Assembly (NCBI GenBank): GCA_002840555.1
Contig: PHBJ01000001.1
Location: 124,001-188,000 of the forward strand
Direction: 5' to 3'
DNA: 64,000 nt
Origin: Deltaproteobacteria bacterium HGW-Deltaproteobacteria-13
GTDB lineage: Bacteria > Desulfobacterota > Syntrophia > Syntrophales > Smithellaceae
The notes below the pieces were generated by a model. It was not told the DNA's origin. It saw only the letters and a program-made list of their open reading frames with translations, and did no database searches. Made by a program: the position numbers and the translations under genes. This document shows positions 1 to 64,000 of this stretch, in pieces; positions within the stretch are counted from its first letter, which is position 1; each line of letters starts with the position of its first letter.

Positions 1-1420
<1,420 letters not shown>

Positions 1421-62057: not shown

Positions 62058-62368
62058 TCTGCCTTAAAAAATTGGAACTAAAAATACCGGCCCTGTAAGA
62101 TATTTTCATCGCGCGCCTGCGGTGAGCTAAACAGATTGGAGCAGGATTTTGTTATGGGGGGAAATCAGGTAAAGAAAACAAATTCTTATCAGGGCACACC
62201 CTGTTTCCCCGTACCCTGTATGGGTTATCTCTGAGCCCCGTTGTATTTCATCAGAAAAGAGCTTGATTCCTGTCGGACAAAAGCCTACATTATGTAGGAG
62301 AATTTCTCACCGCTAATTCGGACTGACGCTGATATCACAATCCATCATCTTGTAGTATTTAATAATCG
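62058..62368. other. First part of the acs upstream region
   Basis: About 310 bases after the permease gene. It contains no credible ORF. Noted here: a palindrome at 62285 and short complementary runs around 62195-62225 (AGGGCAC, ACCCTG). No terminator for the permease gene could be identified. Confidence 0.4.
62285..62299. promoter_or_regulatory. Upstream palindrome, possible activator site for acs
   Basis: CCTACAT and ATGTAGG flank a single T. It is centred about 87 bases upstream of the -24 element. Activators of sigma-54 promoters bind to sites about this far upstream, so it is a natural candidate. Confidence 0.5.
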
Positions 62369-62498
62369 CTTTTCAGGGGGTACGTGTATTGCATCCGCCA
62401 TATGTGATACGCTCCTACGTTGCGGCAGGTTAATCAGAGTACGCGAGTCTGACAAACAGGAACAATGCCCGACGATGGAGCGTACCCCTCCTGAAAAG
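62369..62498. repeat. 130-bp element bounded by 16-bp inverted repeats
   Basis: Left arm 62369-62384 (CTTTTCAGG + GGGTACG) pairs fully with the right arm 62481-62498 (CGTACCC + CT bulge + CCTGAAAAG). A second pair, TACGCTCC near 62409 and GGAGCGTA near 62478, competes with it. The left arm overlaps the sigma-54 -24 box. It may be a small non-autonomous mobile element or a regulatory structure; no target-site duplication is evident. Confidence 0.7.
62377..62394 (+). promoter_or_regulatory. Sigma-54-like promoter of acs
   Basis: GGTACG at 62379-62384 and TTGCAT at 62389-62394, with the invariant GG (62379-62380) and GC (62391-62392) exactly 10 bases apart. Consensus is TGGCACG-N4-TTGCW, so there is one mismatch in the GGCACG part. 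Predicted start of transcription is near 62404, leaving a leader of about 240 bases before acs. Confidence 0.7.
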
Positions 62499-62642
62499 AT
62501 TTGTAAAGGTCATATCTCTCTTTAAAGAGCAGGCGAAGAGACGCATGGCCGGGATGCTCATTCACAAGAAGATAAATCATGCCTTTTTGGCGGAATTTGG
62601 CGGAAATAGAAGGCATAAAAAATAATTTTAAGGAGAATATAT

Positions 62643-64000
62643 ATGGCTGAAATTAATGAAACAGATTTTTACGACAAGGTCTTTCCTGTACCTGAAAGAG
62701 TAAGAGAGAAATCTTACATCAAGAGCAGGGCGGAGTACGACAAACTTTACAAAGAATCGATCACCGATCCCAATGCTTTTTGGGCAAAAATGGCCAACGA
62801 AAGATTGACCTGGTTTAAACCCTTTGACAAAAAGAAAGTTTCGGACTGGTCATTTGATGCGAAAGATGTTCATTCCAAATGGTTTGAAGGCGGCAAGATC
62901 AACGTGAGTTACAACTGCCTGGATCGTCATCTGGCAACCAAGAAAAACAAGGCCGCGATTATTTTTGAAGGCAACGACCCCAATGACTGGAAGGTTTATA
63001 CCTATTTCGACATGTATCGCGAAGTCAACAAGTTCGCCAATGTTCTCAAAACTTTGGGTGTCAAAAAGGGTGACCGCGTTACCATCTTTCTGCCCATGAT
63101 CGCGGAACTGTCCATCGTCATGCTGGCCTGTGCCCGCATCGGCGCGGTTCATTGTATCGTTTTCGGCGGATTCTCAGCAGAAGCCTTAAGAGACCGTATT
63201 ATTAACAGCGACTCTAAAGTGGTCATTACCTGCGACGGCACTTACCGCGGCGCCAAAGCCGTTCCCCAGAAAGCCACATGCGACAAAGCCGTGGATCAAA
63301 GCCCCAGTGTGAAAACCATGGTGGTTGTGAAACGCACCGGAACGGAAGTTGCCATGAAAGAAGGCCGCGATGTCTGGTATGAAAAACTGATGGCTGACGC
63401 CGCGCTTTACTGCAAACCGGAAGAAATGGACGCGGAAGATCCTCTGTTCATCCTGTATACATCCGGTTCGACCGGCCAACCCAAGGGCGTTGTGCATACT
63501 CAGGCCGGTTACCTGCTCTATGCCTCCATGACCCAACAGTTGGCTTTTGATGTTCGTGAAGACGACACTTACTGGTGCACCGCCGACATCGGCTGGGTCA
63601 CCGGTCACAGCTACATCGTTTACGGCCCTCTGTGCAATGGCCACTCCAGCATTCTTTTCGAAGGCGTTCCCAACTATCCTGACTTCGGCCGGTTCTGGGC
63701 AGTCGTCGAAAAATATAATGTCAACAATTTCTATACCGCACCCACCGCGATCCGCTCCATCGCCAAAGAAGGAGACAAGTGGGTCGATATGCACGATATT
63801 TCCTCGCTGCGCGTTCTGGGTTCGGTCGGCGAACCTTTGAATCCCGAAGCCTGGTGGTGGTATTACAACAAGATCGGCGGCGGCCGCTGCACGATTTCCG
63901 ATACCTGGTGGCAGACCGAGACCGGCGGACATATGATTCTGCCTCTGCCCGGCGCGATTGACATCAAACCGGCCAAAGCCATGGTTCCGTTCTTCGGTGT
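62643..64000 (+). CDS. acs: Acetyl-CoA synthetase, AMP-forming (3' end outside window)
   Basis: 452 codons are present of about 650 usual. The N-terminal cap KESITDPNAFWAKMANERLTWFKPFD, AYNCLDRH-like VSYNCLDRHLATKKNKAAIIFEGND, VTIFLPMIAELSIVMLACARIGAVHCIVFGGFS, the P-loop LYTSGSTGQPKGVVHTQAGY, TADIGWVTGHSYIVYGPL and SDTWWQTETGG follow in family order. Acs interconverts acetate and acetyl-CoA; in some syntrophs it is thought to run backward to make ATP from acetyl-CoA and AMP. AAGGAG precedes the ATG. The frame is intact to the window edge. Confidence 0.96.
   Translation, partial: MAEINETDFYDKVFPVPERVREKSYIKSRAEYDKLYKESITDPNAFWAKMANERLTWFKPFDKKKVSDWSFDAKDVHSKWFEGGKINVSYNCLDRHLATKKNKAAIIFEGNDPNDWKVYTYFDMYREVNKFANVLKTLGVKKGDRVTIFLPMIAELSIVMLACARIGAVHCIVFGGFSAEALRDRIINSDSKVVITCDGTYRGAKAVPQKATCDKAVDQSPSVKTMVVVKRTGTEVAMKEGRDVWYEKLMADAALYCKPEEMDAEDPLFILYTSGSTGQPKGVVHTQAGYLLYASMTQQLAFDVREDDTYWCTADIGWVTGHSYIVYGPLCNGHSSILFEGVPNYPDFGRFWAVVEKYNVNNFYTAPTAIRSIAKEGDKWVDMHDISSLRVLGSVGEPLNPEAWWWYYNKIGGGRCTISDTWWQTETGGHMILPLPGAIDIKPAKAMVPFFG

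What the first reader, a model, noticed from the sequence alone, without database searches (positions are those of the whole stretch)
62285..62642. Sigma-54-like acs promoter with upstream palindrome inside a mirror-arm element
GG and GC are exactly 10 bases apart, with GGTACG-N4-TTGCAT, and a CCTACAT/ATGTAGG site sits 87 bases upstream. The -24 box lies in one arm of a 16-bp inverted repeat that brackets 130 bases. If the element is mobile, its insertion would have given acs its promoter; if not, it may be a structural switch. Acs is central to energy metabolism in syntrophs, so this matters.
Basis: partly seen in the sequence, partly recalled or inferred. Interest (0 to 1): 0.68.

Follow-up and report, generated by a model that had tools for sequence, protein, structure and literature searches.

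The report
Conserved structured RNA leader before acs
In fatty-acid-eating syntrophic bacteria of the Smithella group, the gene for their main energy-yielding enzyme (acetyl-CoA synthetase) is preceded by an undescribed, evolutionarily conserved folded RNA leader, and just before it lies a switch region of three repeated protein-binding sites that a neighbouring two-component regulator probably uses, so the 'mobile element with a sigma-54 promoter' is really a two-part control region.

Summary
The sequence features reported are real, but the interpretation changes. The 130-nt 'mirror-arm element' (62369-62498) is a three-way-junction RNA leader. It folds far better than shuffles (z -4.7) and is conserved with compensatory changes (94% of 645 cells paired; 11 of 29 pairs changed on both sides, 4.2 in shuffles). 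G.U pairs outnumber A.C 59 to 7, so the RNA strand is the acs strand. It precedes acs in 21 Syntrophales genomes of two families and, rearranged, a second AMP-forming acyl-CoA ligase gene in two of them. No Rfam family matches. It is single-copy per target gene, not mobile. Upstream lie three dyad sites (TGTMRG-N7-CYKACA-like) spaced 22 and 23 bp, then a fixed-spacing promoter box ending where the RNA begins. The sites also precede a Pat-like gene in four genomes and, in one, a histidine-kinase/LuxR-type regulator operon. That regulator co-occurs with the RNA (19 of 21 genomes, p 4e-20). A sigma-54 promoter would start transcription inside the RNA fold. Its consensus is no better than chance in the window and is broken in two relatives, so it is unlikely but not excluded. 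What the RNA senses or does is inferred, not shown.

The parts
62271..62289 (+). Operator site 1, TGTCGGACAAAAGCCTACA (dyad GTCGG-N7-CCTAC)
   Evidence: Best hit of the operator matrix in the whole 64-kb window, 23.3 bits; conserved upstream of acs in relatives; absent in the ligase copies L077/L078
62293..62311 (+). Operator site 2, TGTAGGAGAATTTCTCACC (dyad GTAGG-N7-CTCAC), 22 bp from site 1
   Evidence: Third-best window hit, 12.3 bits; position fixed 23 bp before site 3 in all 23 copies
62284..62298 (+).
   Evidence: Sequence and site alignment
62316..62334 (+). Operator site 3, ATTCGGACTGACGCTGATA (dyad TTCGG-N7-CTGAT, core 62317-62333)
   Evidence: Second-best window hit, 19.5 bits. Pattern of site 3 + N19 + TAYT is found 23 times in 155 genomes, only at acs, acyl-CoA ligase or HK genes, reversed-pattern control 0
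62356..62369 (+). Conserved box TATTTAATAATCGC, proposed -10 region; proposed transcription start about 62369 (inferred)
   Evidence: Fixed 19 bp after GATAYC in all copies while the 19 bp between vary; ends where helix P1 begins; not a sigma-70 consensus match
62369..62498 (+). Three-way-junction RNA leader
   Evidence: Fold z -4.7; covariation; CM R1 hits in 21 genomes; no Rfam match
62369..62383 (+). Helix P1, 5' arm (CTTTTCA + GGGGGTAC), pairs with 62482-62489 and 62492-62498
   Evidence: re-paired after a deletion in L077/L078
62386..62410 (+). Hairpin P2 with conserved loop CMGYCAT (GTATTGCAT-CCGCCAT-ATGTGATAC)
   Evidence: closing pair U-A changes to G-C in family f2; degenerate in G011, G016 and L077
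62411..62481 (+). Helix P3 (GCTCC/GGAGC) with variable interior
   Evidence: C-G to U-A in G000 and G-C to A-U in G002; lengthened in G007 (CCCCUAUGU/ACAUAGGGG)
62482..62498 (+). Helix P1, 3' arm (GTACCCCT, bulge CC, TGAAAAG)
62379..62392 (+). Sigma-54-like GG-N10-GC; overlaps P1 and P2, judged not to be the promoter
62579..62616 (+). Second hairpin (ATGCCTT...AAGGCAT) shortly before the ribosome-binding site, also seen in relatives
   Evidence: pair changes not counted
62643..63998 (+). acs, AMP-forming acetyl-CoA synthetase (runs past the window end)
   Evidence: Pfam and NCBIfam TIGR02188, E 3e-292 for the full-length gene

Best explanation
The region is a two-module control region of acs. 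Module 1 is DNA: three phased dyad sites bound by a LuxR/NarL-type response regulator (best candidate: the GacA/UvrY-like one encoded about 5 kb downstream with its PAS histidine kinase). The regulator activates a sigma-70-type promoter whose -10 region is about 62356-62361, with a start near 62369. Module 2 is RNA: the first 130 nt of the transcript fold into a three-way junction (P1-P2-P3, conserved P2 loop CMGYCAU) that adjusts expression of the acyl-CoA synthetase mRNA. Shown by computation: sites, fixed spacing, regulator co-occurrence, structure conservation and strand, target genes. Inferred: which protein binds, the start site, and what the RNA does. Among RNA functions I rank specific recognition of the leader (by a protein or a metabolite of acyl-CoA metabolism) slightly above plain 5'-end protection of the mRNA, because loop and interior bases are conserved and not only the helices.
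For: RNA: fold z -4.7. Counted on a model-fitted alignment, 93.8% of cells pair and 18 of 36 pairs change on both sides, against 5.5 in shuffles and 4-11 in slid controls. My manual alignment gives 94.0% and 11 of 29. G.U 59 against A.C 7 cells. In the ligase copies the original P1 3' arm is deleted and a changed 5' arm pairs with other sequence. Folding from 62404 instead of 62369 drops z from -4.1 to -2.3. Targets: before acs in families f1 and f2 and before an AMP-forming acyl-CoA ligase. Operator: the three sites rank 1, 2 and 3 in the window and recur before the Pat-like gene in four genomes, before HK-RR in G049, and in L137 and L091 without the RNA. Regulator: LuxR-type RR + PAS-HisKA_3 kinase beside acs; RR orthologue with the element in 19 of 21 genomes, Fisher p 4e-20. 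RR scores best against GacA/UvrY, 187 bits, below its 280 cut-off. GacA's site is TGTAAG-N6-CTTACA (PMC4950607); here TGTMRG-N7-CYKACA. Placement: with a start at 62369 site 3 spans -52 to -36, the place of the CrbR ACTU motif in the P. fluorescens acs promoter (PMC5715377).
Against: No transcript or binding data. The -10 box is not a sigma-70 consensus, and the -52/-36 agreement depends on the start site I chose. Many both-side changes come from the two ligase copies, probably one event. Relatedness inflates the shuffle tests. P2 is degenerate in G011, G016 and L077. G116 has the element but no close RR match, and G052 (68% complete) lacks it too. No terminator-like hairpin on the + strand of the leader and no clear RBS-masking switch was seen, so a regulatory output of the RNA is not demonstrated.
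Confidence: 0.75

Rival explanations
1. One reading: a sigma-54 promoter (GG 62379-80, GC 62391-92) starts acs at about 62404, activated by an enhancer-binding protein at the upstream palindromes; the hairpin is incidental or regulates sigma-54 access.
For: GG-N10-GC is kept in 21 of 23 copies, also in the rearranged ligase copies; rpoN in all 15 carriers tested; the operators lie at a typical enhancer distance.
Against: The -24 GG sits in a run of 2-6 G and both boxes lie in helices P1/P2, so their conservation is confounded. Consensus not above chance in the window. Broken in G015 and L076. P1 and P2 would not be transcribed intact although they covary with + strand G.U pairs. The same operators precede a Pat-like gene with no GG-N10-GC seen. 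The associated regulator has no AAA+ domain.
Confidence: 0.1
2. The leader is only a 5' stabiliser: a strong stem at the extreme 5' end protects a highly expressed mRNA from decay, with no ligand or partner.
For: P1 begins at the proposed start site; stems are strong; no terminator-like hairpin or RBS mask found.
Against: The P2 loop CMGYCAT is conserved across both families and both target genes, and the f1 acs copies conserve an interior ACAGGAACGA, more than a stabiliser needs.
Confidence: 0.35
3. The leader is a metabolite-binding riboswitch for a compound of acetate/acyl-CoA metabolism (for example CoA, an acyl-CoA, AMP or pyrophosphate).
For: Three-way junction with conserved loops; found only before AMP-forming acyl-CoA synthetases of two families.
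Against: No visible expression platform; narrow distribution (two families of one order, none in a 395-genome phylum sample); interior conserved bases are lost in the ligase copies.
Confidence: 0.25
4. The element is a mobile inverted-repeat element (MITE-like) whose insertion gave acs its promoter.
For: Inverted arms bracket 130 bases.
Against: Single copy in the genome, orthologous position in 21 genomes, no copies at unrelated genes; the arms covary as an RNA helix.
Confidence: 0.02

Closest known systems
CrbS/CrbR (MxtR/ErdR) control of acs through the ACTU motif, Pseudomonas and Vibrio (PMC5715377, PMC8402216)
   Same: LuxR-type response regulator activates acs; a 17-bp imperfect inverted repeat at -52 to -36 before a sigma-70-type promoter; regulon also holds other acetate genes
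   Different: Kinase here is a PAS-PAS-HisKA_3 protein without SLC5/STAC domains matched; RR is closer to GacA/UvrY (187 bits) than to ErdR (80 bits); three tandem sites of another consensus; a structured RNA leader follows
GacA/UvrY/SirA response regulators and their UAS TGTAAG-N6-CTTACA (PMC4950607)
   Same: Nearest named RR family by score; near-identical half-sites (TGTAAG...CYTACA occurs in several relatives)
   Different: Spacer 7 instead of 6; score below the family cut-off; target is a metabolic gene rather than Rsm/Csr small RNAs; the encoded kinase is not a GacS-type hybrid
Cis-regulatory leader RNAs / orphan riboswitch candidates (Rfam)
   Same: Conserved three-way junction in the 5' UTR of functionally related genes, with compensatory changes and conserved loops
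   Different: No Rfam family matches; narrow taxonomic range; no recognised terminator or RBS-masking platform
Sigma-54 (RpoN) promoters
   Same: GG-N10-GC spacing and TTGC at -12
   Different: Lies inside an RNA structure; lost in two copies; not above chance in the window

Membership tests
Sigma-54 promoter | GG-N10-GC at -24/-12 | tested here: met
   Present in the window and 21 of 23 copies; broken in G015 and L076
Sigma-54 promoter | Match to TGGCACGN4TTGC above chance | tested here: not met
   2 mismatches; 3 such matches in the window against 6.0 expected
Sigma-54 promoter | rpoN in the genome | tested here: met
   15 of 15 carriers
Sigma-54 promoter | Enhancer-binding (AAA+) activator linked to the site | tested here: inconclusive
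   Linked, co-occurring regulator is Response_reg+GerE without AAA+; other activators in the genome were not surveyed
Sigma-54 promoter | Transcription start 12 bp after GC | not testable with these tools
   Needs 5' end mapping; structure conservation argues against
CrbS/CrbR system | LuxR-type RR genetically linked to, and co-occurring with, the acs control region | tested here: met
CrbS/CrbR system | CrbS: SLC5 symporter-STAC fused to the kinase | tested here: not met
   Kinase matches PAS-PAS-HisKA_3-HATPase_c only
CrbS/CrbR system | RR passes the NCBIfam ErdR model | tested here: not met
   79.7 bits against cut-off 390
GacA/UvrY family | RR passes the NCBIfam UvrY/SirA/GacA model | tested here: not met
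   Best-scoring model but 186.8 bits against cut-off 280
GacA/UvrY family | UAS TGTAAG-N6-CTTACA | tested here: not met
   Half-sites alike, spacer is 7
Rfam RNA families | Match to a described covariance model | tested here: not met
   None at gathering threshold; best at E<=1 is 18.4 bits against a cut-off of 49.8
Cis-regulatory structured RNA | Covariation-supported structure on the sense strand of a 5' UTR | tested here: met
   that it is transcribed is inferred
Cis-regulatory structured RNA | Effect on expression, ligand or protein partner | not testable with these tools
   Bench work needed
Mobile inverted-repeat element (MITE) | Multiple copies at unrelated loci | tested here: not met
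   One copy per genome plus one at a related gene in two genomes

The most novel reading that the evidence does not exclude
A new riboswitch-like RNA class, restricted to syntrophic Syntrophales, that reads a metabolite of acyl-CoA/acetate metabolism and tunes AMP-forming acyl-CoA synthetases, stacked on a dedicated two-component regulon that also controls a Pat-like protein acetyltransferase: three layers of control on the acetyl-CoA/ATP step.
Probability: 0.2. Interest if true: 0.85.

Novelty: new variant of a known kind. Interest (0 to 1): 0.58.

Why it matters
In the related syntroph Syntrophus aciditrophicus, Acs runs in reverse and makes ATP from acetyl-CoA, AMP and pyrophosphate, a main energy source (PMC4992975). 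A dedicated regulator array plus an undescribed conserved leader RNA in front of acs gives a direct handle on how such bacteria set their terminal energy step, and the RNA can be tested in a test tube without culturing the organism. The linked regulon (acs, a second acyl-CoA ligase, a Pat-like acetyltransferase, the kinase and regulator) is a coherent hypothesis from sequence alone.

Tried and rejected
Rfam at gathering and at E<=1: nothing.
Antisense RNA: the - strand folds less well (z -2.7), and + strand G.U pairs dominate.
Mobile element: rejected on copy number and orthology.
Upstream block as part of the RNA: AUAC/GUAU and GUNGG/CCNAC pairings are possible in single sequences, but site halves are mismatched in several relatives, spacing is fixed, and the sites recur without the RNA (L055, L091, L137, Pat-like promoters), so I read it as DNA. 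Not formally excluded.
Absence of rpoN as a refutation of sigma-54: rpoN is present everywhere tested.
Pseudoknot between the P2 loop (CCGCC) and GGCGG in the RBS-proximal hairpin: fits G000 and G020, not most relatives; dropped.
CsrA site at the conserved ACAGGAAC: interior lost in the ligase copies and changed in G016 and G044; dropped.
Terminator-type riboswitch platform: a hairpin with a U-rich tail follows the element in the f2 loci L075 and L076, but none on the + strand of the window leader.
The class search covered the same 155 genomes as the order. Two genome contigs matches, L124 and L126, are chance.
Alignment A5 contained antisense rows and was not used.

Full report
WHAT IS THERE. 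The window ends inside acs (ATG 62643). All are correct: GG-N10-GC at 62379-62392, CCTACATTATGTAGG at 62284-62298, and inverted arms 62369-62384 / 62481-62498. The + strand folds as a three-way junction at -53.7 kcal/mol (z -4.7, 0 of 200 shuffles); the - strand is weaker (z -2.7). Rfam has no match.

RELATIVES. BLAST over 40 relatives found the element only upstream of acs orthologues. A family-wide search extended this to four genera. A covariance model (R1) over all 155 genomes of the order gave 21 carriers in two families. It also gave two second copies, in G015 and G016, placed directly upstream of another AMP-forming acyl-CoA ligase (Pfam AMP-binding; NCBIfam PRK06187 above cut-off). A phylum sample of 395 genomes added none outside. 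Names come from a whole-collection pattern scan: Smithella, Smithellaceae, Syntrophaceae, Syntrophales. The window genome's own organism name is not shown by the tools; its relatives place it in or near Smithella. Acs orthologues in G100 and G102 lack the element, and G031 has the operator block but no RNA.

RNA. On the model-fitted alignment of 23 copies 93.8% of cells pair, with 18 of 36 pairs changed on both sides (shuffle mean 5.5; slid structures 4-11). Because that alignment leans towards its model, I made a manual structural alignment: 94.0% paired, 11 of 29 pairs changed on both sides, shuffle mean 4.2, 0 of 1000 shuffles as high. Changes fall in P1 (U-A to C-G in G007), P2 (closing U-A to G-C in family f2) and P3 (G-C to A-U in G002, C-G to U-A in G000). 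In the ligase copies a deletion removed the original P1 3' arm, and the altered 5' arm (UGGGUGCG, UCGGUGCG) pairs with CGUAUCCG, formerly interior sequence. The helix was kept while its partners were exchanged. G.U cells number 59 against 7 A.C cells, and 41 against 7 without the constant G.U pair (p 6e-7), so the pairing strand is the acs strand. Caveat: the sequences are related, many changes sit in two copies that may share one event, and cell counts are not independent.

CONTROL BLOCK. Upstream, the alignment is conserved in blocks of fixed spacing. Three dyad sites are centred at 62280, 62302 and 62325. Sites 2 and 3 are exactly 23 bp apart in all 23 copies, and a TATTNAATAATCG-type box starts 19 bp after GATACC. 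The site-3 + N19 + TAYT pattern occurs in 155 genomes only at acs, the ligase, and one kinase gene, with zero reversed-pattern hits. A matrix built from the sites ranks the three sites 1, 2 and 3 in the window and finds further sites upstream of the Pat-like gene in four genomes, with the kinase-regulator pair beside it in all four loci and directly before it in three. In G049 the block without the RNA precedes the kinase-regulator operon. In L137, a different deltaproteobacterium, the same array precedes a small membrane-protein gene. So the block works as DNA independently of the RNA.

REGULATOR. Beside acs lie a PAS-PAS-HisKA_3 kinase and a Response_reg-GerE regulator. Orthologues of the regulator (>=84% identity) occur with the element in 19 of 21 carriers and in only 2 of 134 non-carriers (Fisher p 4e-20). 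In one of those two, G057, the contig begins 65 bases before acs. The regulator scores best with the UvrY/SirA/GacA model, below its cut-off. GacA's published site TGTAAG-N6-CTTACA (PMC4950607) resembles the half-sites here with one more spacer base. CrbR activates acs in Pseudomonas through an inverted repeat at -52 to -36 (PMC5715377). If transcription starts at 62369, site 3 (core 62317-62333) lies at exactly -52 to -36. This is a suggestive coincidence, not proof, since I placed the start by the beginning of P1.

SIGMA-54. The GG-N10-GC pair is retained in 21 of 23 copies, but its bases are also helix bases, the GG lies in a G run, the match is not above chance in the window, and two copies lose it. 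A start at 62404 would leave P1 and half of P2 untranscribed, and folding from 62404 lowers the z-score from -4.1 to -2.3. rpoN is present. I leave sigma-54 at 10%.

FUNCTION. Shown: conserved operator array, conserved RNA, shared target type (AMP-forming acyl-CoA synthetases), linked regulator. Inferred: activation by the linked regulator, the start at 62369, and post-transcriptional control by the leader. The P2 loop CMGYCAU is conserved across both families and both target genes, which favours specific recognition; the lack of a visible expression platform favours a stabiliser. In the related syntroph Syntrophus aciditrophicus, acetyl-CoA synthetase makes ATP from acetyl-CoA, AMP and pyrophosphate (PMC4992975), so control of this gene is control of the energy budget.

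Noticed in passing
L120:2688-5375 (-), L117:7835-10519 (+), L119:9492-12221 (-), L116:12806-15490 (-): A 894-909-aa ADP-forming acyl-CoA synthetase fused to a GNAT domain (Pat-like) next to acs, with its own copy of the operator array in all four genomes: possible post-translational control of Acs by acetylation in the same regulon.
   Followed up: partly
L137 (Deltaproteobacteria CSP1-8), about 1134-1240 (-): The same three-site array and 19-bp box upstream of a small hydrophobic membrane protein (MPLIHVVIVLVVVGVILWLI) in another lineage, without the RNA; suggests a wider regulon for this operator type.
   Followed up: partly
L028-L037, upstream of the acs paralogue (about 63% identical to window acs): The paralogue has an unrelated conserved promoter (TTGACATCAAAGCGATCTTAGGGTAGGGAA-like) in all genomes of the genus examined and no trace of the element.
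   Followed up: no
62579-62616 and relatives: A second conserved hairpin (AUGCYUU...RAGGCAU) 10-20 nt before the acs ribosome-binding site, followed by AAAAAAUAAUUU; pair changes not tested.
   Followed up: no
L075 and L076, just downstream of the element: In family f2 a long perfect hairpin (AUCAUAUGUUCCUUCG.../CGAAGGAACAUAUGAU) with a U-rich tail follows the leader; might be a terminator or attenuator.
   Followed up: no
L115:335-2041 (-): A 568-aa protein near the kinase-regulator operon in G049 looks like an AcoR-type sigma-54 activator (by eye only).
   Followed up: no
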